A stretch of 64,000 nt of DNA, taken from positions 434,001-498,000 of the forward strand of contig CM066302.1 of assembly GCA_033807695.1 (NCBI GenBank), given 5' to 3'. A program made the position numbers and the translations under genes. The notes under the pieces are model-generated. The model saw only the letters and a list, made by a program, of their open reading frames with translations, was not told where the DNA came from and did not search any database. Positions 3,750-60,926 of this stretch are shown one piece after another. Within the stretch, counting starts at the first letter, position 1. Each line of letters begins with the position of its first letter. This stretch comes from Daedaleopsis sinensis. Taxonomy: Eukaryota > Basidiomycota > Agaricomycetes > Polyporales > Polyporaceae.

Positions 3750-4365
3750 TCCTTTGTGTTTCCTCAAGACCTTCTCAAGGAAACCGCGGAGGTAAGCTGC
3801 CTGCTACTCAGGATTTGCGAACATGTCACTTACAACCGTCATTGCGCCTCGGCAATACAAGTTGCTTCTGCTGCGCAGCATGCTGTCTTTAGTGGATTCA
3901 CTCGCATGATCGCAAGTTAACGTTCAATTTCCCACTAGAGATGTGAAGTGCTATGTATACGTATACATAATACGTAGCTACCAGTACTACTCACTGCACA
4001 CCCCCGCCTGAGGCCTGAGGCCTGACTCGGAATGCTGCCGTCCCGACTCGATCGCTAAGGACGTTCATTTCCAAATTCATCGCGACATGTCTAGCCCAAC
4101 TTGAACTTTGTGTATGTTACTCACTTTTTACTTGCGAGGCTAACCAGCTGCCGCAGCTCCTTACTGGCAGCCACTATTAGGCAAGCTCACCACTCGGATC
4201 CGCTTATCGAAAACGTTCCTGTGTCGATTGATCCCGAGCATGGTTGGCGTAATCGGAGTTGTCACTGGTCATAACGATTTACTAGCCTTTCTCTGCTGGG
4301 CTACATAAGTTCCCCCATCGAACACACTCCCCTGACGAGCTATCCCGGGAGGGCCGCAGAGCACG
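3750..4365. other. Intergenic
   Basis: No coding signal. A short perfect tandem of GAGGCCT-type units lies at about 4008-4025. A weak TATA-like stretch (tacataag) near 4302-4309 is about 60 bp before the start codon at 4366 and could be the old promoter of the hydrolase pseudogene. Confidence 0.4.
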
Positions 4366-5245
4366 ATGTCCTGCCCCGACTGCGTCTCCGGCTACGTGCA
4401 CGATGTCACGCACAAAGGCACCGAGATCAAGATTGGGAACATTTCTGCGTACGTGACTGTGGATGAAGACTCGAAGCGCGTCATCATCATCGGCGTAGAC
4501 GTATTCGGCTGGCGGTTTGTGAACACACGGCTCCTCGCAGACGAATATGCCGCGCAGGGGTTCAGGGTGTACGTACCTGACCTGTTCACTGGTGAGTTCA
4601 CATGTTCCCTGCGCGCCCCTGATCACGTCAGGATAGGGCGGTGAGCTGCGCGTGCGACCGCTTAGTATAATGCTCACCGAACCTCCACGCAGGCTGGCAG
4701 CTCCCGCCCTGGGCACTCAGTCCGCATGACCCTACCGCGGAGCTGGAGCTGTCCTTCATCCAGCGCTACGTCGCGCGACCCGTCTCGCTCCTCGTCATCG
4801 TCCCCTTCATCATCTGAAATATGCCGCGCCAGGTGTCGATCGTCTCTGTAGTCACGTCGAGCCTGCGCGCCGCGCACCCGTCCGCAAAGATTGGGCTCGT
4901 CGGCTCTTGTGCTGGGGCGGGCACGTGGCGATCCCCCAGAACTACCTGTTCTACGCGACGGTCGCGTGCCACCCGTCGTTGGTCAGGTTCCCCGCGGAGC
5001 TTGATGGAATAGAGAGCCAGTTTAGCCTGGCGGCCGCAGAGACGGACCGAGGGTTCAACCGCGCCGTGGAGGAGACGGAGAAGATCTTGCGGGAGAAGGG
5101 GCTGCAGGCTGTCGAGGTGAAGGTGTATGTCGGTGTGCATCACGGATGGACCGTTCGCGCGGACATGGCAATCGAGGAGGAGAAGATGGGGAGGGACGAG
5201 GCCGTGAAGCAGGTCCCGAACTGGTTTGGTAGGTATCTGAGCTAA
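4366..5245 (+). pseudogene. Dienelactone hydrolase family pseudogene (nonsense plus frameshift)
   Basis: Exon 1 (4366-4591) begins MSCPDCVSGYVHDVTHKGTE and contains DVFGW and YAAQGFRVYVPDLFTG, the classic N-terminal signature of fungal dienelactone hydrolases (alpha/beta hydrolases with a Cys nucleophile). A 101-bp intron (4592-4692) is consistent in phase. Exon 2 keeps family sequence but has an in-frame TGA at 4815-4817, where family context suggests a Trp codon. The frame then breaks at about 4902-4908, just before the nucleophile motif: SAKIGLVG is read in one frame and CWGGHVAIPQN in another (net +2 or -1). From there the frame is open to 5245, including the His region VGVHHGWTVRADM. The nucleophile Cys and the His are therefore present but cannot be reached by normal translation. 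Without the lesions the product would be near 250 residues, the usual size. A sequencing error could explain one lesion, less easily both. Confidence 0.8.
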
Positions 5246-41026: not shown

Positions 41027-42569
41027 TCACCACCCTTCGTCATCGTCTTCGATCATGAACCTCGCAAAGTCTTCAGTGACTTGGCTCTGCCCCTCGCCAC
41101 TCGATATAGACGACGTGTCATCATCAAGGTCTGGATCCGTGTACCCACTAGTCACGACGGAGACCTCTGTCAGGAACGTCAACACGGCGCATAAGCGGCG
41201 CTCTTCAGCTCCTAGGTCCATGTTTCGCAGCTCTTGCTCGAGTACACTAGCCCCGTTGCAACAATGTGACCGTTTGCGTTTCTTAAGGAGGGCCGGGTGG
41301 TAGTTCAAGGTCAACACTAGGGATTGGAGGGATGAGAATGCGGCAAGGGAGGCCCGGATAGCATCCTAACAGTTGCATATGAGTAGGCGTACCGCACAAG
41401 GGGAATAAACCTACCATAATGATATTGAGACGGATCTCGTCCTCATCGGGCAGCAATCTGACTTCGAGCTCCAGTCTTCGCAATTGGTCCGTCTGCCGCA
41501 GCACCGTGGAGAGCATACCGTTCTCGCCGAGAACGGTCGTTCCCGCCACAGCGACGATGAGGTGCGAAGGGCGCATGTCCGAGACAACGTCCACGAGATA
41601 CCCGCCGTTCCTTGTCGATATCGAGTCGAGCACTCGTAACGTCGGAACATGAGAGATGAGACCAAGTTCATACAGGTCCACAGCAGTACCCGACACCTCC
41701 TTCAAGCGCGCCCAAGTACAGTTGTAGATTGCTTGATCCGACCGATTCGAAGCTCGTCTGCTGAGAAATGGGTTAAGAAAAGGTTGCTCCTCCGCCGCCT
41801 CGAGTGGTACCTGAAGAGATAGGTACTCGAGGCTAGGGTAGGCGTGGATGTACACGATAATGCCTGGCACCGTAGGGCCTGAGTACCCCATTGTGAGCCT
41901 GCGGACCAGAGGATACACGACGTCGTACTTGATGACCAGCGGATCGACCTCGAAGCCGTTTCCGGAAAGCTCTTGGAGTGTATTCGAAGAGCGGATGAGG
42001 AGAAGGATCGGGTTGCGCTCGTCTGGGTCGGCAGGTGAGCTCCATGTGTTGAATCGCTCGAGCCCCAATGAGGCAGTCGCAAGCGAGGACGATAGAGAGC
42101 GGATGAGATCGAAGGAGCGCAGGTCACTACGATCCATTTTGAGGTGTTTGAGAGTGGTCAAAGAGGCGAAAGCGTGAAAGAGCGAGTCTCCATCATCCCC
42201 ACCTCCATCGCAGGCATCCGAGTCAGATGTGAGGATTGCTTCTGCGTCAAGCAGGGCGAGAGACTCGAGCTGTAGGGAAGGGTGTGCGATGAGGCCCCTC
42301 AGAGCGTGCAAGGCGCGGGGGGAAATGCCGCCTGCGAATATCTCGAGACATCGCAGATGGCGCACACGACTACCACCATCCGCAAGTGCAAACTTTGCGA
42401 AGGAAATGATCTGCTCGGTCGACGACAACGCGATTTCGCCTTCGAGGAGGTACCTCGCGCCAGCGCTCCGAAGGACGCGACACGTCATTGACATTCTCAA
42501 CCTGCCCTGAAAAGGGGACACTTCCAGGATTGCAAGGAGAATGTCGAAGGGAAGTGCAGGATCGTTCAT
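41027..42569 (-). CDS. F-box/LRR-like protein (F-box gene 2)
   Basis: Two exons on the minus strand: 42569-41415 and 41365-41027, with a 49-bp GT-AG intron in phase 0, giving 497 residues. The start MNDPALPFDILLAILEVSPF is followed by MTCRVLRSAGARYLLEGEI, the F-box pattern shared with the neighbouring paralogue (MNDIVTRLPFDVIVHVMPYS, then MTTCRVYYDEGPRHLLHGGV). The body is leucine-rich and ends with SLQSLVLTLNYHP and an acidic tail (DPDLDDDTSSIS, FMIEDDDEGW). Reading through the intron gives a shorter tail ending LELPPGPP, but splicing restores the block matching IPLPS-LRVLELHL in the relatives. Predicted role: SCF ubiquitin-ligase adaptor of unknown target. Confidence 0.85.
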
Positions 42570-42708
42570 GATAGTGGGTCCTCTACATCTCGGGCAAACT
42601 ATCAGTGTCTAAAGCACGCCCAGTATAGTATCCAAAGCACGTACAGTGCTGTTTTAGTATCGATTCAATCTACCAAGCAGTAGGGCCTTGAGACGGAGTC
42701 CGATCAGA

Positions 42709-42800
42709 GGGGTAAGAAGCAAAGACGTGTATGGCGCTTAACTGCCACAACGCGAATGGCCCAAAGCGGGAGAGGGCGGGTGCACAGCCACACCGACTCT
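42709..42800. repeat. Segmental duplication, non-coding copy 2
   Basis: Near-identical to 40412-40500. Between the two F-box genes, about 140 bases upstream of the start codon of gene 2 and about 700 bases downstream of the stop codon of gene 3. The similarity extends leftward on the minus strand through atgcgatctgcgaagta at about 42902-42918. A third, more diverged copy with gcatgagtcattggcaagta lies at about 45517-45555. Confidence 0.85.
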
Positions 42801-43497
42801 CTGACCGACGAGTCGGAGTTCATCTTACTTTCTTACTTTCACTGTAGTCCTTGCTTCGCCCTTCACGAGCGTACTTAGCATGAGTCACTGGGCAGTACCT
42901 CTATGCGATCTGCGAAGTAGGCAAAGTCGATAATGTGAATGCTCATTAGTAAGCGCCATTCGAGTCGAACATCCATTTGTTTTTGTTCAAGTCGCAGACT
43001 CCACTGTGCTGGTGAGTAATAGACAGCTCTTAGGAGAGTAGTAAGCTCGAATAAGCGCTGACATGGGTAATTTGATGTCTCCAGTATGAAGATCATAGTA
43101 GTAGTTGGTACTTGGCGGGCATGCAAGCCTCGCGCGTGTAGATTTCTGCTTTGAGCCGCCTAACGGAATCATTCATCTATTCGTCTTCTTGGATACCAAT
43201 AGGGTCCGATGGTATGTCAATACTGGCTGTTAACTATGTAGGTTCGAATGCATAAACCAAAGACCGAAGCGGCAGCGCTCAAGAGATATTTCGCGAGGAC
43301 TACTTTGACCTACTATGAGCAATCAATTAGATACGAGAGTATAGTACGGCTCACTTTCTGTGCCTATAGAAAGCGTAAAAGTGCTCTCCAACACCTTCCC
43401 CTGCGAGGTCGGGAGATGCAGATGAGTGGTCATCATGATGACGGTCGAACGACTGAAAGAGCAACACGATGACGTACCACGATATCCTTTTCCATTC

Positions 43498-45142
43498 TCA
43501 CCGCCTTCCGATCCGCTCAGCACCACCAACAGTCAGAATCAGTTCTGTAGAAGTATCCATAAGCGTCGAGTCGACATAGGTGAGGTCGTAGTCCATCCTC
43601 GCGTCGTTGTTAGAATATTCCTCCCCGCCCTGATCGAGGTCGGGCCAGTCGGGAACATACTTTGGCACAGGCTTCACCGTCACGCGCTCCAAAAATGGTG
43701 CGAGACTTGAGATGGTCCGACCCAGAGCTTCAAGAGCATGGTGTGACGTTACTTGACATCGCTCCCCGGCTAGTTGCTGGGGTAGAGTAGCATGGGACGG
43801 GCCTGAGAAGCTCAAATGCAGCTCCAGAACGCGCAGAGGTGAGGGAATAGGAAGCAGAATGTCTCGTATGCTCTTCTACATGTGTACAGAGCCTCAGTGG
43901 TATGGTGCAGCAACAAGTCGTATATGACTTACCAGGGTCCCCTGGCCATCTTTATCGTCCTCTGAGACCGGGAGCTCTACCGCAATCCGCAATACTCGCA
44001 AGTCGTTGTATTCTTGATCGCGGAGGATGCTCATAGCGGTGTCGAAGACATCGAGATCGACTGTGCCGAAGGAGAGCTCGGTAGGACGAGTATCTGACAA
44101 CACCTCACGGAGAAGAGGTGGATGATCGACCGTGTCGAGGCGCTTCCAGATATGAAGCCTAGTGACATGACACGAGAGTCCCAGAGTATGGAGTGTCTGT
44201 ATCTCTCCTAGACACTCCTTGAGGACCGGCCAGGATCCATCACGCTCCTGATCACCCTTGTTGCGTCGGCGCATACCGCGCGCCTCCACGGGGTCATAGT
44301 ACGAAGCAGACGCCACGGTCTGGCTGTCGCCAGGGATGAGTTCGAGACGTGAAAGGTTTGGAAAGGTTCGAACGAGGGATATGGTGCGCAGATCGGCAAG
44401 TATTGAAGAATCGCAAACCATGCCAAAAGTCTGCATTTTAAGGAATGATTGCCCTATACGAGAGGATGTCACCTTTCGATCCATAGACACAAGCATGAAA
44501 AAACTCACCGATTTCATCGAAACGATTGCACCGCAATTGCTCTAGAGTATCGGCGTGGCGTTCCAGAAGGCGGTGGCTTGTCAATACTGAAGTCGTCCCG
44601 AGGAATGGTTGACAGGAGATTGAAGCTGTCACGAGGTGGGAAGGGAGATCTTGGACGACTGCAATAATCATGTCAGGACAGTATATGCCCTGATCTGAAC
44701 GCGCGTGGAGCACCAGATGCTTGATGGTAGTGTGCCCGCCGAACGCAGCCTTGGATTCGGCGATGGAGTCAAACAGAGTATCACTTGCGTGCAGGATCAA
44801 TGTATCGAGACACAAGTCAGGACACCGCAATAATCTCATGAGGCAAGCCTCTTTGATCATCGACTCTGAGGGGCGGAAGCCGATGAATTCAAGAGGATGG
44901 ACATCGATCTCTAGTTGCTTTAGAAACAAGAATCGACTGGTGCCCGGTGCGAACATGAAAGTCGCGAATCGCTTGACGTCTTTCATCGAACGAAGGATTA
45001 CCCCGCCATGGAGTAAATGTCTTGGTCCTTCGTCGTAGTAGACTCGACAGGTAGTCATAAGCGCAGCGACGACTGAGGAAGGGGAGTATGGCATAACATG
45101 GACAATCACGTCGAAAGGGAGCCGCGTGACAATGTCGTTCAT
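43498..45142 (-). CDS. F-box/LRR-like protein (F-box gene 3)
   Basis: Three exons on the minus strand, 45142-44509, 44453-43933 and 43875-43498, with 55- and 57-bp introns; phases agree and the product has 510 residues. The N-terminal F-box-like segment and the LRR-like body match gene 2 in order: an LFLKQLEIDVHPLEF strand, LCLDTLILHASD, FPNLSRLELIPGD, LREVLSDTRPTELSFGT, and a last exon with IPSPLRVLELHLSF. The last exon ends ILTVGGAERIGRR, shorter and less acidic than gene 2. It is a tandem paralogue of gene 2 (same strand, about 0.9 kb apart, duplicated flanks). Its last exon is also the parent of the fragment at about 6223-6530. No lesion is seen, so it is probably functional. Confidence 0.85.
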
Positions 45143-46534
45143 GATCTAAGAGATCATCGTTAGTTGTAGATTGCAAATCATACATGTTGCATACATTAGG
45201 CAGTAGGCCTCGTTGCAGCTCGTGTAAGATTGTTTCCAAAAGGAATGAAAGGAGACTCTGGGGAGGAGGATAGAACAACTTGAAGGAGGTGCGAGATATA
45301 TCCGAGCACCGACTACCGCAGCACATTTGGCGTGAGAAGCGCTTCTGAAGAGCGGCAATCTCCTCAAAAGGCAGGAGCGGGAACTTGGTGAGACACCGCC
45401 ACCCCGACATCTCGCAGATCAGACTCTCAGGTCCGACCTAACTCTAAATTTCGTCCGACTAGGTTCTTATTACGACTTTCAGCAGTACTTCTTTCAGCCT
45501 TCCCTAGAGTACCTGGCATGAGTCATTGGCAAGTACCGTTGCTATGCGATCTGCCCGACGCTCTGACCCGGCGTCAGCGTTTTCGTCGAACCTTATCCAG
45601 TGGCTGCCACAGTAGGCTGCAGACTGCAAGGCTGGGTACGCTGGCGTGTGGGGCCCTCTTGCAGATCAGATACCTACGAATTTCTATCTAAGTTCCATGG
45701 ATTCGCTCAATCATACTAGAGCCGCTAGACGAAAAGAGGTCGGTCACAACCAGTTCTCTTATCGCCTCGGACCTTACTCGGACCACTGACACGGATTCTT
45801 AACGTCAGTTCGCTACATTGTAGTCGGCTATTAGCGGCATCGGGCCCAATCTGTACCATAAATCGAAAGGTGTGTTTTAATGCGTCGTCCTGCATTGAAC
45901 GTTGAACAGTGAACAGTAGTTAATGCTTGCAATTCATTTTAGTTGTCACGAAGTCGGGAAGATGGGCCGAGTCTCCGACAACGAGTCCATCATGAGGTCA
46001 GTAGTGTCCTTGCTATACTCGCTGTATCTTACGAGCATTTCTCTAACACGTGCAAACTCAACTACGATGATAGGTCACATCTGCGCTTGTCTGCAGAGAC
46101 AATTTCAACCAAAGCGCTATGCAGCGCCGCTGGCTATTGAACTGTGTCGCACAGGTACGCCTCCGGGCGGGATGCTTGTCCCCCTTTACCCCACGCACTT
46201 TCACACTCGGCGTACCATCCCTAGGCTTACCGCGTCTCGCCCTGAGGTAATGTTTATTGTATCTCTTCCCGCCGGGGAGTGGTTAATTCAGAGTCCATCA
46301 GCTAGTGTGGTTCTCGACAGGCTAGAGTCTCCCACACACTCTCGAACAACATAATTCTATGGGCCTGTGGCGACATATCGTTCTATGGTGAGCGCAATCC
46401 GCAATAGCAGTAGACCCTCCTTGGCACGATCTCTGCCTCCTGCACGGAGTATAAAGGGATGGGTCTCAGGCGGACTTGCTCAGCATCGAGCTGAAGCAAC
46501 TCGTATTTCTCTTTCAAAGCTATCGCACAACGCA
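45143..46534. other. Intergenic; diverged third copy of the duplicated flank
   Basis: About 45430-45560 carries a decayed copy of the F-box flanking repeat, suggesting a lost third gene unit to its right. A 173-codon minus-strand frame (44889-45410) overlaps F-box gene 3 in another frame and is probably chance. Nothing else is supported until the promoter of the next gene. Confidence 0.4.
46450..46455 (+). promoter_or_regulatory. TATA box of repeat-precursor gene
   Basis: The sequence tataaa, in the context ggagtataaaggga, lies 85 bp before the start codon at 46535, the normal position for a regulated fungal promoter. Confidence 0.65.
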
Positions 46535-48415
46535 ATGAAGCCGATCCACTTGCTCCCCTTCCTCCTTCTCGCACTATTTGCTGTCGTTGGAAAGGTATGA
46601 ATTGTATTCTTTTACTTGCTCTACCACTGTACTGACTCGTCTCTTCGTTACCCTGTGTACAGTCGTTGCCGCGGGACTCGTACTATGTCAGAGTCAAGGA
46701 TGACGTTGAGGGTCCAACGTACGCGTGGGCCATAGGTGCGGAGGAAGAGCGCCGTCTCAGCGAGCTGCTCGACCACGACATCCGGGACCTCGACTTCGTC
46801 GGATTCAACATGAATACTGTCCCCCGGGTGTGTTCTCACTGCGGCAAAGAGACGGAGATCATTGACTGGTACGTGGTCTCTTTGAGATGTTATCCCGCTG
46901 TCCAGTTCTTATAGTCAACGACATTGAACGCCGCTAGGTTTTGGACCGCGCTCGAACGGGGCATCCACTCCAAGGAGTGGCTAGTCCAGATGATGAGAGA
47001 GGGACGGCTATCCCAGAAGGACGCACACGACGTGTACTGCTCTCGCTGTGGACACTTAACGGTATTCCGGGACCCTACTGGCGATGAAGGCGGAATGCCC
47101 CATATCTCGCATGCTACAGTGTGTCGTGTTTTCCGACACTCTTGTTTACGCCCTCGCTTACATGCTCTACAGCCGTATGACCGCACTACTCGGACGTTCG
47201 CTAAACGTGAAGTCGTAAGTAGCTATCTCTCATGAACGACTTGCAGAGCTCTACTCGCTGACCACCATGGCACAGGAACCCGTGTCAGAGGTTCAGGATA
47301 ACGTCCCTGAAGAGCTCAAGGACGCTGTCAGTCATTTGGCCTCATGGTTTTGTCATATTTGTTCTGATTTCCACCTTCTCAGGATTTCGGTGCGGCCGAT
47401 GCTGCGTCTTCAGAGACCGATGACCTCCCGAAGTGGCGCTCCGCCTGGCTCGTCAAGAAGGACAACATGCCCGACGAGCTTGAGACAGATGACCTCCCGA
47501 AGTGGCGCTCCGCCTGGCTCGTCAAGAAGGACAACATGCCCGACGAGCTTGAGACAGATGACCTCCCGAAGTGGCGCTCCGCCTGGCTCGTCAAGAAGGA
47601 CAACATGCCCGACGAGCTGGAGACAGATGACCTCCCGAAGTGGCGCTCCGCCTGGCTCGTCAAGAAGGACAACATGCCCGACGAGCTTGAGACCGATGAC
47701 CTCCCGAAGTGGCGCTCCGCCTGGCTCGTCAAGAAGGACAACATACCCGACGAGCTGGAGACAGATGACCTCCCGAAGTGGCGCTCCGCCTGGCTCGTCA
47801 AGAAGGACAACATACCCGACGAGCTGGAGACAGATGACCTCCCGAAGTGGCGCTCCGCCTGGCTCGTCAAGAAGGACAACATGCCCGACGAGCTTGAGAC
47901 CGATGACCTCCCGAAGTGGCGCTCCGCCTGGCTCGTCAAGAAGGACACAATGCCCGACGAGCTCAAGACCGTGACGGAGACGGAGACGGAGACGGACGAG
48001 CTCCCCAAGTGGCGGTCGGCGTGGATTGTCAAAAAGGACAACATGCCCGATGAGCTCACGGCGGCGAACGCTACGTCCGAGTCCCAGCCCGAGTCCGCCG
48101 AGCTCCCGAAATGGCGCTCTGCGTGGATCGTCAAGAGGGACGACGCTCTGGGGGAGTCCACAGTTAAGGTACGTCGTCACTTCTGAGTTTCTCATGATAT
48201 TGAGATGTATATCGCACGTCCTGGCAGGAGGGAGCTGCGTCCGAGACCACCCACGCGGATTCGGCTCAACCTCAGGCTGAGGACGCCGGCGAAGACGGAG
48301 AGCTCCCCAAGTGGCTTTCGTTCTGGCTAATCAAGAAGGACAACGCGCCTGACGAAGTGAAGGCCAGGGTACGTTGGTACTATTGCGAAATTGTAAACGA
48401 TGTCTGACGCAGTGA
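46535..48415 (+). CDS. Secreted tandem-repeat precursor with CxxC head and dibasic sites
   Basis: Seven exons join in phase: 46535-46594, 46663-46868, 46938-47214, 47276-47326, 47383-48168, 48228-48368 and 48413-48415. Introns are 44-69 bp; the last splice creates a stop straight after KAR. The product has 507 residues. Residues 1-20 (MKPIHLLPFLLLALFAVVGK) look like a signal peptide. Residues about 25-130 form an unknown head with Cys77-x2-Cys80 and Cys123-x2-Cys126 (CSHCGK, CSRCGH), a possible zinc ribbon. From residue 211, eight near-identical 23-residue units carry DDLPKWRSAWLVKKDN then MPDELET; three diverged units follow (ELPKWRSAWIVKKDN, ELPKWRSAWIVKRDD, ELPKWLSFWLIKKDN). Every unit has two or three Trp and a KK or KR pair, so Kex2-type cleavage would release about ten 21-residue peptides. 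This matches the architecture of fungal Kex2-processed repeat proteins (Ustilago Rep1, UstA-type RiPP precursors, pheromone-like precursors), but I recognise neither head nor core. An optional 54-bp intron (47119-47172) inside exon 3 keeps frame. ATG 47267 has a strong context and could start a shorter form without the head. Confidence 0.75.
47419..47970 (+). repeat. Eight 69-bp tandem coding repeats
   Basis: Units begin at 47419, 47488, 47557, 47626, 47695, 47764, 47833 and 47902, exactly 69 bp apart, differing at only a few positions (cttgag/ctggag, aca/acc, atgccc/ataccc). Diverged units begin near 47998, 48100 and 48298. Because 69 is a multiple of three, all six frames stay open here, which creates long false frames on the minus strand. 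Confidence 0.97.
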
Positions 48416-51400
48416 GGATGGTACCAGGTTGCCGATGAACAGGACTGATGTCCACAATAGCTCTTGAAACGAACTTGGAGAGCTCGGAGTTGTATGTTTG
48501 TGAGCCATTTTACTTATGATCTCGATTGGCGCTGCGCACTGGCTTACTGTCGCTATTGATAGGATTGCGAGGCCCTGGGAGGGAGTAGAAATCACGGGAG
48601 TATGAATCACGAAGGCTTACCAGACGAGGGTGGTTTTGAAATGAAGTGTCTCCTCTCTATGTACTATGTAGTCATCGTGTCTCAACAATATCAGCAAGCG
48701 AACTCGTCGCATGAACAATCTGCTCGACTCTTCACACGCTCGTAAAAGGGGAGTAAAACAGCTCATGTTTATTGGGGCTGGTTACTACAAATCCGCGTAC
48801 AGGATATGTTCAAAATGTCATGCTGGCGCCGTGCTAAAAAGTATGGCAGAGACCAACCTAGTAGCCGTCGAGCTCCAGCACGGAGGTGCGGCACCAATTG
48901 CCCATGATGAAGGTGTCGGTGACTCCCCTGCGAGGAACAGCCGGTCTGCAGTAGAGTTCTTGAATGAGGTCGGTATATCGACCGGCAGCGAGGAGCAGTA
49001 TCTTCCCTATACGGCCAGCAAGGAAGTAATGGAGCAAGATTCGTCGGCTCCGCCCGCTGTTTCATGTTGCCGGACTTGGACGCAGAGTCGAAGACCGTAG
49101 ACGACATGGCGAGCGAGACCGATGTTGCGCGTGCCGGAGCGCCCCCGCTACAGCGTTGCCAAGGCGGAGGAGAGTGGAGTCCGTCTGCACAGGCGGCGTG
49201 AGCACAGGCAGCGTGAGCAACAGGATCGGAAGGTAACGTCCACTTCATGGCGGCGGTGCGCTTAGACTTCTTAGAGTCTTCTTTGCGATTCGTCGGCTTT
49301 GCCCGGCTGGTGCCGCGGCTGCTGGTTTCGCCGAATGTTCCGCGCTCATAGGTCACTATGAACTTGGGGGAGTCGTTGAACGCATTCTGGGAGACACGCT
49401 GGACCTTGAGCACGCTGCACTGAAGAGGACGAGATAAGTGTACGACGACTTGTTTATGAAATCTATATGCCCACCTCTCTGGTTAGGTCTTCATGCCCAC
49501 CAACACGAACTTCACCACTTCGCTTGACCGTGTTCCCGCCGTTTCGTTTTAGAAAAGGATGCCCGTGGAGGGAGAGAGGATGAACCGGCGGCCTGGATGG
49601 CGACCTGCGATTGGATCGAGCTCATGGGATGGCGGACGTCTTGAGTTCCGGCGACTTCCGTGAGCCGTTTTGTGCCCTTTGAGGCCGTAGGGGCGGCTTC
49701 CATGTACGCATCCCCGTCTGCTTGGTGGTCGGATGCCGACGTGTTCGACAAACCGAAACTCGTTGTCGATCACCAAGGCCCGTTACTCGTACCGCAGGCG
49801 GTTGTCCAGGAGTCTGAGAACGAAGGGCGCGTCGTAGGGGAGGAATGCCAGTGGCAGGGTGAGGTAAGTAGCCCAGCGTCGAGCCTGAGTGGTTAGGGAT
49901 TGATCCGTGGGTCGTCCTCTGCAAGGCTGGTCTGCGCCGGGCTTTCCCCTCCCACTATCGCCTCGGAAGCTATTGCCGTTGTTCACCGTTGGAGGACCTT
50001 CCGCTTGTGGGACGTTGACGCACTCGTGCATCTCGAGGTTATAGAAATTGAATCCAGCCATGCTGCGGAGGGGCCGGTGAATCCGATAAGGGTCGGGTAT
50101 GGGGGTAGCGAAGGAGAAACCGATGGAGGATCGACGACGCTGCACGAAGCGAAGTCAAATGGACGATCAAGAATCATGGACACTATGATGAACCCACGAT
50201 GAAACGGGGCGCATATTTTCTGCGTAGGGACGCGTCATTGCATCACGGTGAACGCGGGTGAATGGGCAACGGTGGACGACGGATATTCAGGATGTCGCCA
50301 CCGAAACATGAGGGGATGGCGGGCGATGGTGGAGGAGCTGGGTAATCGAGTAAGGGGAGACCCGAAAGGGTCCCAGGATAGCGCAATGGCGCGGGTTGGC
50401 GTGCGAGGCTCCATGTTCTGCGAGTCGGTAGCCACAATCTGAGCGTCGGCGGCCGGTGTGAGTAGTCGCGGATGAGGACTACGGGGTCACTGAAGGTACT
50501 TCGTTGTGGAGCATACTTGTAATCAGGATACAATCGCTCGTGCTCCCTCTTCGCCTCCTCCGCGAGACGATAAAACCTCGCTTTCGCCGCCTATCCTCGT
50601 CGAGGTGGGCCATGGCAAACCTCAACATTCCGCGTGGCGGGTTGCATGTCGACCTGGCAGGATGTCGCGGGGGGTATTGAAGGGATGTGCCACCTAAACA
50701 TATGGACGTTGAGCACGCTAGTCAAGGCCTAGCTTCGATGCTACGACGCTCACCATCATATCGAGGAAGAGCCGGCACTATTGCCACTCAGTGACCTCAT
50801 CAATGTAGAGCTCCTCGATCCATCCCCAGACAGCGACTCTTCGACGACTCACGCAAATAGGTCAAGTGCTGGTCTCGGGGTCGGGTTGTCGTCGACGTCC
50901 TGCCTCTCCGAACTGCACCGCAGCTTTCCTTCTATAACTACAACGCAATCTGGGCCGCAATCAGCATCCAACCCCACTGGGACCCGTTCAAAGACACTCA
51001 CCGACGACCTTTGCACACTCTCTGAGCCGCCTGCGGACCGCGCATCGTGTACTTCGTCGTACGCCTCCGAATCGCTTTTCTCTGCGTCGTCGGCCAGCTC
51101 GGCGCTACACCCTCGGCGGGCGGCGTGGTCGTATATCCTCTTGCTTAGACGAGGGAAAGTGCGGCGAGAAGGCGGGAGCGGCGTGGCCGCTTCCCGAGGT
51201 GTGTCGGATGGCATCGAGGTGACTACACAGTCCGATGGCAAGGTAGTAGGACTTCTGAGGAGTTTGTCTGTGAGATAAAAGGGGGCAAGTAGTTGGCGGA
51301 GAGTGGAGCGGCATCGAAGAAGTGGGTGTTGCTGGAAAATCTGAGAGCTCCCGGCTTGGGGTTATAAGCAGCCAGCGCAGTACTAAGGGCTTTCTTGCGT

Positions 51401-58934: not shown

Positions 58935-59944
58935 TCATTCCGTCCGCGAGCCCCCGCCCGGCCCCTCGCTCTCCGCCAACTGCACGAAGCGCTCCCACTG
59001 CGCCTTCGGCATCTCGTAGCTCTCCGCCGCCGCGGGGAAGCTCCGCTCGCGCACGGCGTCGACGTAGCCCCGCACGCCCTTCCCGACCTCTGCGCCTACG
59101 TCCGCGAAGCGCCGCACGAACTTCGCCTGGTGCCCGTGCCAGGTGCCCATCACGTCGTCCCACACGAGCACCTGCCCGTCCGTCCCCGGGCCCGCCCCGA
59201 TCCCGATCGTCGGCACGCGCTTCAGCTGCTGCGAGATGTACGTGCCGAGCGCGTGCGGGATCGCCTCGAGCACGACCGCGAACGCCCCCGCGTCCTCGAG
59301 CGCGACCGCGCTCCTGAGCACCCCGAGCGCGGCGTCCGCGTCGCGCCCCTGCAGGCGGTACCCCGAGAGCATGACGTGGCGCTGCGGGAGCAGCCCGACG
59401 TGCGCCATGACGGGGATGCCGACGCTCGTGAGCCGGCGCACGGTGTCGACGAGCTCGAGCCCGCCCTCGAGCTTGACACCCTCCGCGCCGCCCTCGCGCA
59501 CCATGCGCACCGCGGCGCGCACGGCGTCCTCCGCGCCCGCGTAGTACGTCCCGAACGGCATGTCGGCGACGAGGAGGGGCGTGCGAGAGCCGCGCGCGAC
59601 GGCGCGCAGGTGGTGCAGCATCTCGTCGAGCGTGAGGCGGGTGGTGGAGTCGTAGCCGAGGCAGACTTGTGCGAGGGAGTCGCCGACGAGGGTGATGTCG
59701 ACGCCGTGCGCTTCGCACGCGCGTCCGGTAGGGTAGTCGTAGGCGGTGAGCATGGTGATCGGGGTGCGGGACGCTCGGAGCGAGTGCAGGTGCTGGATGG
59801 TCACTTTCTTCCGTGGCGCGCCTGAGGGAGAATTCTCAGCTGGCTGTCTCAAGTCGTAAGTATAATGGGAAGCAGGGCGTTGCGGAACCTTAAGCAAGAT
59901 CCTGCAGACATCGGCATACTCAACCACGTGTTGAGCGAAGACAT
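58935..59944 (-). CDS. panB: 3-methyl-2-oxobutanoate hydroxymethyltransferase (PanB)
   Basis: Ketopantoate hydroxymethyltransferase makes ketopantoate from alpha-ketoisovalerate using 5,10-methylene-tetrahydrofolate, the first committed step of pantothenate and CoA synthesis; in fungi it is usually mitochondrial. The conserved domain begins at RKKVTIQHLHSLR and carries ITMLTAYDYPTG, ITLVGDSLAQVCLGYDST (metal and substrate loop), LLVADMPFGTYY, EGVKLEGG, GIPVMAHVGLLPQ, and IGIGAGPGTDGQVLVWDDVM. All expected motifs are present, with small variants (AHVGL where GHIGL is usual). The open frame runs back to 60011 without an ATG. The likely start is ATG 59944 (MSSLNTWL) joined by a 98-bp intron (gtatgc to ctcag) to SAPRKKVT, but the N-terminus is unresolved. 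The C-terminal tail ESEGPGGGSRTE is short. GC and third-position GC are very high, which opens antisense frames. Confidence 0.93.
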
Positions 59945-60854
59945 CTGAACGGAACGGCGAATCGTGTGGCGATGCGTGACCCTCCGAAGTGGTTAAAACC
60001 CTTTCTTGCACGCATTCATAGGGCTACAATGTCCCTACTTACAACGAGGTAGTTTGAGGCGCCGCCACACCTGTGGTACAACGGCGCCAAAAACTTCTGC
60101 GCGACAGGACTCACAAGCCTTCGACAGCAACATCATGGACGGCACACGACACAATCCGCCCAAGGATGCGAAGTTACGTATGCGATAAAGACGTACCGGT
60201 ACCGGCAATGCCCTGACGCTCCTCCGGTCGCGCACTGAACCATCTGGGAGCGCACGCTCGGAAGGGGTGATGGGTGAGAGGAAAGTCCGGAAGCACCGTT
60301 GGGCGCCGCGAACGTTTGAGGGATCTGAGCATCATTCACGACTTCTCTGCGTAGTTCGCGGTCGGGCTTTGAGATGGGAGTGAGATAAGGGAGGAGATGA
60401 GAGGCAGGGCGCGGAAAGGGGCCGTTAGTTTTACATCGGAAAAATGGGCTTCCGACTCGCCGAGTGATTTTGACAAAAGATCCTGCTCAGCTGCGCCCCA
60501 CCCGGCCCCGACATCATCGTTGTCTCGAGTCGTCTCAGCGGACCTCTTCCGGGTGGCAGAACGAAGGGCGTATGGAACGACTGGTATATGCTCCCGCGCC
60601 TGCCGGTAATCATGCCCCGGTTGCCGGTGCATCGTATGGTTGCAAGAAATCGCGTCGCATTTTGTCGTTCAGAGAGACAATAAGCAAGTTGTATGAGTCT
60701 ACGGTGCAAGATATCGGTACAGGTCGTAGTACGAGTCGTAGTGGCAAGAGGCAAGAGCCTGGAGAAAATCCCAACCACAAGCTGAGCTCCTGCTCAAGTT
60801 GAAACGATCTCACATCAAGCCCAAGGTATAGTCCCGCAAACGCCCCTATACGTA
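59945..60854. other. Intergenic between PanB and tRNA-Thr
   Basis: No coding signal; short frames only. The left part should contain the PanB promoter. Confidence 0.4.
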
Positions 60855-60926
60855 GCCCTTATAGCTCAGTGGTAGAGCGCGCCACTCGTAATGGTGAGGT
60901 CGGTTGTTCAATCCAGCCTGAGGGCA
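60855..60926 (+). tRNA. tRNA-Thr(CGT)
   Basis: The acceptor stem GCCCTTA (60855-60861) pairs with TGAGGGC (60919-60925), discriminator A. The D arm is AGCTCAGTGGTAGAGC. The anticodon stem CGCCA/TGGTG holds loop CTCGTAA, anticodon CGT (Thr, codon ACG). The T arm is GGTTG-TTCAATC-CAGCC. A T4 run follows at 60930-60933 as Pol III terminator. It has no intron and 72 nt, standard for a type I tRNA. Confidence 0.95.

What the first reader, a model, noticed from the sequence alone, without database searches (positions are those of the whole stretch)
46535..48415. Secreted tandem-repeat precursor with a two-CxxC head: possible new peptide system
A signal peptide, an unfamiliar head with two CxxC pairs and at least 11 Trp-rich modules each ending in KK or KR. 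Eight units are near-identical 69-mers, so the array is either young or being homogenised. The layout fits a precursor that a Kex2-like protease cuts into about ten copies of one Trp-containing peptide, as in Rep1, UstA-type RiPPs or pheromones. I recognise neither head nor core from any described class. The Trp-x3-Trp spacing (KWRSAW) could allow cross-linking or amphipathic assembly.
Basis: partly seen in the sequence, partly recalled or inferred. Interest (0 to 1): 0.9.

Follow-up and report, generated by a model that had tools for sequence, protein, structure and literature searches.

The report
Mushroom peptide precursor, conserved head, Trp repeats
A wood-decay mushroom gene appears to encode a secreted protein that is probably cut into about ten copies of a tryptophan-containing peptide; it belongs to a little-described gene family in which the front part stays alike while the peptides behind it change from gene to gene.

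Summary
Eight spliced exons (46535-48448 +) encode 495 aa: hydrophobic signal segment, a head with C-x2-C-x42-C-x2-C, one KR, then 11 units W-x3-W-x2-K[KR] (10 KK, 1 KR); eight units form a 69-bp tandem array at 97% match. But head and core are not unique. The head is a conserved family (precomputed label PF26731.1 on 31 of 38 matches; model not held locally) in Fomes, Trametes, Cubamyces, Earliella, Daedaleopsis and others, with seven loci plus a decayed copy in this genome. In 18 of 30 members with a tail over 60 aa, 73 W-x2-dibasic units end in KR 50, KK 18, RR 5 times, mostly followed by Asp/Glu. So this is a Kex2-processed repeat protein (KEP) by the published definition, not a dikaritin: no UstYa match found lies within 0.8 Mb of any copy. 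Unusual: heads stay more alike than tails in all ten pairs I compared (for example 83% against 26% within one species). Three relatives, two from other orders, appear non-secreted with one Trp motif, a possible ancestor. Processing, products and function are inferred, not shown.

The parts
46450..46455 (+). TATAAA, 85 bp before the ATG
   Evidence: consensus match only
46535..46594 (+). exon 1: hydrophobic signal segment MKPIHLLPFLLLALFAVVGK
   Evidence: hydropathy maximum 2.95; similar segment in paralogue C11a and D. nitida P0020; SignalP was not available
46663..46868 (+). exon 2: head, first CxxC (CSHC)
   Evidence: alignment
46938..47118 (+). exon 3: head, second CxxC (CSRC)
   Evidence: alignment
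47173..47214 (+). exon 4: end of head PYDRTTRTFAKREV with dibasic site KR (residues 160-161)
47276..47326 (+). exon 5: acidic link EPVSEVQDNVPEELKDA
47383..48168 (+). exon 6: ten W-x3-W units, nine ending KK and one KR
47413..47963 (+). eight near-identical 69-bp units inside exon 6
   Evidence: 97% matches, no indels; pairwise differences
48228..48368 (+). exon 7: eleventh, divergent unit ELPKWLSFWLIKKDNAPDEV
48428..48448 (+). exon 8: C-terminal VADEQD and stop (least certain exon)

Best explanation
The gene encodes a precursor of the Kex2-processed repeat protein (KEP) kind. Step 1, supported by sequence: an N-terminal hydrophobic segment sends it into the secretory pathway. Step 2, inferred: a Cys4, zinc-ribbon-like head folds and is cut off at KR160-161. 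Step 3, inferred: a kexin-type protease cuts after each KK/KR, with Leu or Ile at P4 and Asp at P1'; a Kex1-like carboxypeptidase then trims the basic residues. That would give seven copies of D-N-M/I-PDELETDDLPKWRSAWLV (21 aa) and four longer Trp variants per molecule. Step 4, shown by comparison: in this family the head is kept while the repeat cores differ gene by gene. The peptides most likely act outside the cell on other organisms or as signals; that last step is by analogy with studied KEPs only.
For: Eight-exon open frame with head exon sizes kept in the paralogue. Head dN/dS about 0.08 by NG86. 73 W-x2-[KR][KR] units in 18 of the 30 family proteins with a tail over 60 aa: KR 50, KK 18, RR 5; P4 is L/I/V/A in 51 of 73; P1' is D/E in 56 of 73, and D/E at P1' exceeds that tail's background in 15 of 18 proteins (units within one array are not independent). 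Kex2 sites that are cut are enriched for acidic P1', P2' and P4' (PMC2515848, passages); P4 preference is aliphatic (PMC8528282, passages). Paralogue C12a has four units with dibasic residues on both flanks, KK-AENAGWCQRCVLGNWII-KR and variants. Earliella P0009 has KR-EPEA, a Ste13-like XP/XA start. A kexin-type gene is present: P-domain and S8 matches side by side on C2, 3704560-3706071.
Against: No transcript, peptide or protease data. 10 of 11 sites after units here are KK, and Kex2 takes Arg at P1 'almost exclusively' (PMC8528282 passage). Conservation runs across the site (WLVKK-DNMPDEL here, WLIKK-DDMPEEL in C11a, and even a Trp-less ARR-SNLPEEV in Earliella P0015 and P0016), as would also be seen if it were not cut. 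Some members have a head but no W-x2-dibasic unit (P0014, P0015, P0016, P0022, P0023), so the head may have its own role. In 3 of 18 proteins the P1' preference is absent (C11b, P0011, P0031).
Confidence: 0.77

Rival explanations
1. The repeat region is not cut at KK. It stays as a long alternating acidic/basic, Trp-studded extracellular polymer, for example a surface or cell-wall protein.
For: KK is a poor Kex2 site (PMC8528282 and PMC6339444 passages); the conserved block spans the KK; in the main array the spacer is net -6 and the core with KK net +4.
Against: Relatives have KR or RR at the same place (55 of 73 units); unit number varies and core types are swapped between related genes, which suits excised peptides better than a scaffold.
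Confidence: 0.12
2. The head is the main product (a secreted zinc- or disulphide-stabilised protein) and the repeats are a disposable tail.
For: Head more alike than tail in all 10 pairs compared, for example 83% against 26% for two genes of Cubamyces lactineus; members without W-x2-dibasic units exist; AlphaFold gives the head of P0017 pLDDT 85-97 over residues 21-90 and 73 and 88 over the next two tens.
Against: W-x2-dibasic units recur far above shuffles in most members with tails, and the WCQRC..GNW core is kept in this genome, Daedaleopsis, Trametes gibbosa and Polyporus arcularius, so cores seem to be under selection too.
Confidence: 0.08
3. A RiPP whose Trp residues are cross-linked by tailoring enzymes, as in dikaritins or similar.
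For: Multi-core precursor with conserved Trp pairs; the genome has at least 12 UstYa matches.
Against: No UstYa match found within 0.8 Mb of any of the 7 loci (the search scores best candidates only). No tailoring domain in 20 window ORFs scanned with Pfam (19 of the 56 ORFs of at least 190 aa, plus one of 181 aa; intron-split genes and the 37 others can hide one). KEP peptides measured in Agaricomycetes are linear and minimally modified (PMC9769878 abstract).
Confidence: 0.03

Closest known systems
KEX2-processed repeat proteins (KEPs) of fungi (Le Marquer 2019, Umemura 2020, Vogt 2022)
   Same: Signal segment, repeated units, dibasic sites between them, under 800 aa; some known cores end in Trp (for example ...AADW, ...PSW in PMC9769878 results).
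   Different: In the parts of these papers that I read, KEPs are compared by their repeats; this family is defined by a conserved Cys4 head shared by genes with different cores. Mainly KK here. In Umemura's main text 'Trametes' occurs twice, both under type G-1/P-2, a Tyr-rich type. Supplements, where members may be listed, could not be read.
PF26731 (precomputed domain label on 31 of 38 matches)
   Same: The head is presumably this domain; the label sits on head-only proteins such as P0017 and P0029.
   Different: The model is not in the local Pfam, so its name, span and score could not be checked; no paper in the library holds the string PF26731.
Rep1 of Ustilago maydis
   Same: Repeats with Kex2 sites (PMC2515848, PMC8528282 passages).
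   Different: No Ustilago protein among the named matches. Rep1 itself was not fetched for comparison.
Dikaritin (UstA-type) precursors
   Same: Signal segment and multi-copy cores at Kex2 sites.
   Different: No neighbouring UstYa found; core is not the Y-x-I-x type of PMC7329392.
Ascomycete alpha-pheromone precursors
   Same: Kex2-type multi-copy precursor, Trp in the core; Ste13-like XP/XA in one relative (P0009).
   Different: No XA/XP start at the window's sites (KK-DN, KK-DT, KR-DD, KR-EV); no MF-alpha match at E up to 1 in Pfam.

Membership tests
KEP | N-terminal signal for secretion | tested here: met
   Hydrophobic segment, hydropathy maximum 2.95; like segment in paralogue and D. nitida. 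SignalP itself not available.
KEP | At least three similar fragments between dibasic sites | tested here: met
   Seven 21-mers plus four longer Trp units
KEP | Kex2-type dibasic sites (KR, RR, KK) between repeats | tested here: met
   10 KK and 1 KR after units, 1 KR after head; KR or RR in 55 of 73 family units
KEP | Actual cleavage and release of peptides | not testable with these tools
   Needs peptidomics
Dikaritin (UstA-type) | UstYa/DUF3328 gene nearby | tested here: not met
   12 UstYa matches in the genome (a lower bound), none within 0.8 Mb of any of the 7 loci
Alpha-pheromone type | Ste13 XA/XP dipeptides after the Kex2 site | tested here: not met
   Sites read KK-DN, KK-DT, KR-DD, KR-EV; seen only in relative P0009
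Rep1 | Sequence kinship with Rep1 | tested here: inconclusive
   No Ustilago protein among the named matches, but the search needs shared words and Rep1 itself was not compared
Zinc ribbon | Two CxxC knuckles | tested here: met
   Both motifs found in 34 of 46 rows held (the rest are mostly fragments); first-to-third Cys distance 46 in 32 of 34, 43 in P0011, 63 in P0033
Zinc ribbon | Match to a curated zinc-ribbon model over its cut-off | tested here: not met
   Window protein 19.7 bits, best of 8 proteins 21.1, cut-off 24.8 (Zn_ribbon_NUD); 13 of 18 members match it at E up to 1. One relative, P0029, bears a precomputed PF09297 label.
PF26731 | Match to the Pfam model | tested here: inconclusive
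   Label precomputed on relatives only; model not held locally

The most novel reading that the evidence does not exclude
A KEP family born from a non-secreted Cys4 protein: the ancestral form (still seen in Gloeophyllum, Pleurotus and a metagenome) has no signal segment and one C-terminal P-R/T-W-G-K/R-W-W-L-D motif. In the polypore lineage it gained a signal exon, and the single Trp motif was multiplied, first as one exon per unit and here as a tandem array in one exon, gaining dibasic cuts. The head was kept as a dedicated carrier or folding domain (a neurophysin-like role) behind which the organism swaps peptide cargoes: one head, many cores.
Probability: 0.2. Interest if true: 0.75.

Novelty: new variant of a known kind. 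Interest (0 to 1): 0.5.

Why it matters
Most mushroom KEPs have no known function (PMC9769878 abstract) and the surveys I read compare them by their repeats. A family with a conserved head gives a handle for finding such genes, including those whose cores have changed beyond recognition, and lets one ask why the head is kept: does it escort, fold or silence the peptides? If the non-secreted relatives are truly ancestral, it would be a traceable case of how a repeat-peptide precursor arises. It also yields exact peptides to look for.

Full report
What is there. The window lies at C3:434001-498000 of a 51.6-Mb, 24-contig genome. On the + strand, eight exons from 46535 to 48448 encode a 495-residue protein: MKPIHLLPFLLLALFAVVGK, a head with CSHC and CSRC, KR at residues 160-161, an acidic link, and eleven units of the form LPKWRSAWLVKK. 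Tandem Repeats Finder scores the eight-copy 69-bp array at 1032, the highest of 23 rows in the window. The first seven copies differ from each other at 0-3 of 69 bases; the eighth differs from them by 4-6. None of the six variable positions lies in the codons of LPKWRSAWLVKK.

Is the gene model right? The paralogue C11a at C11:3318825-3320588 has head exons of 60/209/181/42 bp (window 60/206/181/42) and a like signal exon. Annotated proteins of Daedaleopsis nitida (P0020, exons 1-2; it starts further upstream and runs on after exon 2) and Fomes fomentarius (P0002, exons 2-3-4) are joined at the same places. Substitutions between window and C11a are mostly silent (head dN 0.125, dS 1.50; exon 1 dN 0.071, dS 1.48; NG86, dS near saturation; YN00 failed on the head). 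TATAAA lies 85 bp before the ATG. A start at ATG 47267 would discard a head under purifying selection. No transcripts were available.

The family. A search with residues 21-215 of the whole protein gave 7 proteins (E up to 1, 327 candidates); a profile of 11 sequences gave 20; a head-first profile of 18 sequences gave 38. In the last two only about 8000 candidates sharing most words were scored, so counts are lower bounds. Of the 38, 31 are named and 7 come from unnamed sources. The named ones are from Fomes, Trametes, Cubamyces, Lenzites, Earliella, Daedaleopsis, Polyporus, Cerioporus and Dichomitus (polypores; only Daedaleopsis was looked up, the rest is recalled) except Gloeophyllum trabeum (Gloeophyllales) and Pleurotus ostreatus (Agaricales). 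31 of 38 carry the precomputed label PF26731.1. In the own genome there are seven loci: this one, two on C11 about 41 kb apart and four on C12 within 175 kb; at least two of these look damaged (C12:2170 lacks the first CxxC, C12:2275 has a stop in a unit), and C7 has a decayed copy. In C11a four of six units, and in C12a four of four, sit on their own small exon; in the window ten units share one exon. So the array grew inside an exon here.

Cores. Of 30 family proteins with a tail over 60 residues, 18 have at least one W-x2-[KR][KR] unit, 73 units in all: KR 50, KK 18, RR 5. The 12 without are P0014, P0015, P0016, P0019, P0021, P0022, P0023, P0024, P0028, P0030, P0034, P0035. Of these P0024 and P0028 (TYGWDTISCLT-KR) and P0030 (FYHPRLWAKAPH-KR) have other KR-ended repeats, and P0015 and P0016 have a Trp-less remnant ARR-SNLPEEV. 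Other core types: WCQRCVLGNWII-KR in this genome's C12a and in D. nitida P0011, with WCQRC variants in T. gibbosa P0010 and Polyporus arcularius P0013; RWPGNWIA-KR-EPEA in Earliella P0009; YWHSSNWAV-RR in P0012. In ten pairs that I chose, head identity was 51-91% and tail identity 26-73%, head above tail in 10 of 10; two Cubamyces lactineus genes give 83% and 26%, window against C11a 83% and 41%, while pairs with the same core keep 60-73% in the tail (P0024/P0028, P0026/P0004). In the head tree (36 rows) the four WCQRC genes of three or four genera group together but weakly (83/76), while the two YWHSSNW genes and the window/C11a/Fomes group are well supported: some cores are old, others change between close sisters.

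How it probably works. The three KEP papers I looked at mention KK as a possible Kex2 site, one of them as a weaker one (PMC6339444 and PMC7329392 passages; PMC9769878 screening section, which cut in silico at KR, RR, KK and RK). Features here that favour cutting are Leu/Ile at P4 and Asp at P1' (PMC8528282 and PMC2515848, passages). Against it: Kex2 prefers Arg at P1, and the conserved block runs across the KK. The exchange of KK for KR at the same place in relatives is my main reason to believe in cutting. The genome has a kexin-type gene (P-domain and S8 matches side by side on C2). Predicted main products: DNMPDELETDDLPKWRSAWLV (five copies) and its M-to-I form (two copies), then four longer Trp units.

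The head. Both CxxC motifs are found in 34 of the 46 rows held; the rest are mostly fragments, but P0008 and P0021 are longer models in which the first pair is not seen. First-to-third Cys distance is 46 in 32 of 34. Pfam zinc-ribbon models match only below their cut-offs here; one relative, P0029, bears a precomputed zinc-ribbon label. AlphaFold gives a compact helix/strand head (P0017 model: pLDDT 85-97 over residues 21-90, then 73 and 88; pTM 0.66). I could not place the fold: PDB by sequence gave nothing, the VIA second look gave nothing for either model, and Foldseek did not accept jobs.

A possible origin. P0034 (Gloeophyllum), P0021 (Pleurotus) and P0035 (metagenome) form a 100/100 clade opposite the 33 others (root at midpoint only), have no hydrophobic N-terminus (hydropathy maximum -0.05 to 0.75) and one motif P-R/T-W-G-K/R-W-W-L-D at about the place where the repeats start in the others. 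The resemblance to the repeat unit is weak by shuffling, and repeat-poor secreted members score as well. A missed signal exon is possible: P0013, P0026 and P0028 are polypore models that seem to lack their N-termini. No such protein was found in the own genome. Hence probability 0.2.

Literature. I read of PMC9769878 the abstract, results parts 1 and 2 of 3, the screening method and the discussion; of PMC7329392 passages and part 2 of section 6; of PMC6339444, PMC8528282 and PMC2515848 passages. Nine searches listed no paper whose title or abstract start concerns this head or these cores; otherwise only their listings were seen. Supplements of the KEP surveys, where single members may be listed, were not open to me, and the library holds open-licence papers only.

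Verdict. A real gene and a real repeat array; a KEP by the published definition, as far as sequence can tell; a variant in that it belongs to a head-defined family with exchangeable Trp cores.

Noticed in passing
window 58935-60023 (-): ORF with ketopantoate hydroxymethyltransferase domain (PF02548, E 4e-102); ordinary metabolic gene.
   Followed up: no
window 60855-60926 (+): tRNA-Thr (CGT).
   Followed up: no
window 41283-45145 (-): ORFs that look like F-box/leucine-rich proteins by eye; no Pfam match at E up to 0.01.
   Followed up: partly
L026 about 4080-5200 (C12:2275280-2276400): Paralogue with YWHSSNW-type units in which one unit has a TGA stop where the next unit has TGG; probably a decaying gene.
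   Followed up: partly
L034 (C7:2926117-2926230, -): Decayed head copy with several stops.
   Followed up: partly
L025 (about C12:2169850-2170800): Family copy in which the first CxxC of the head was not found, with Trp/KR units scattered over different frames.
   Followed up: partly
L024 (about C12:2100600-2102060): Paralogue with four WCQRC..GNW units flanked by KK and KR; the two Cys could form a disulphide in the peptide.
   Followed up: partly
P0009 (Earliella scabrosa): Array of RWPGNWIA-KR-EPEA units with Ste13-like XP/XA starts, an alpha-pheromone-like layout in a basidiomycete.
   Followed up: no
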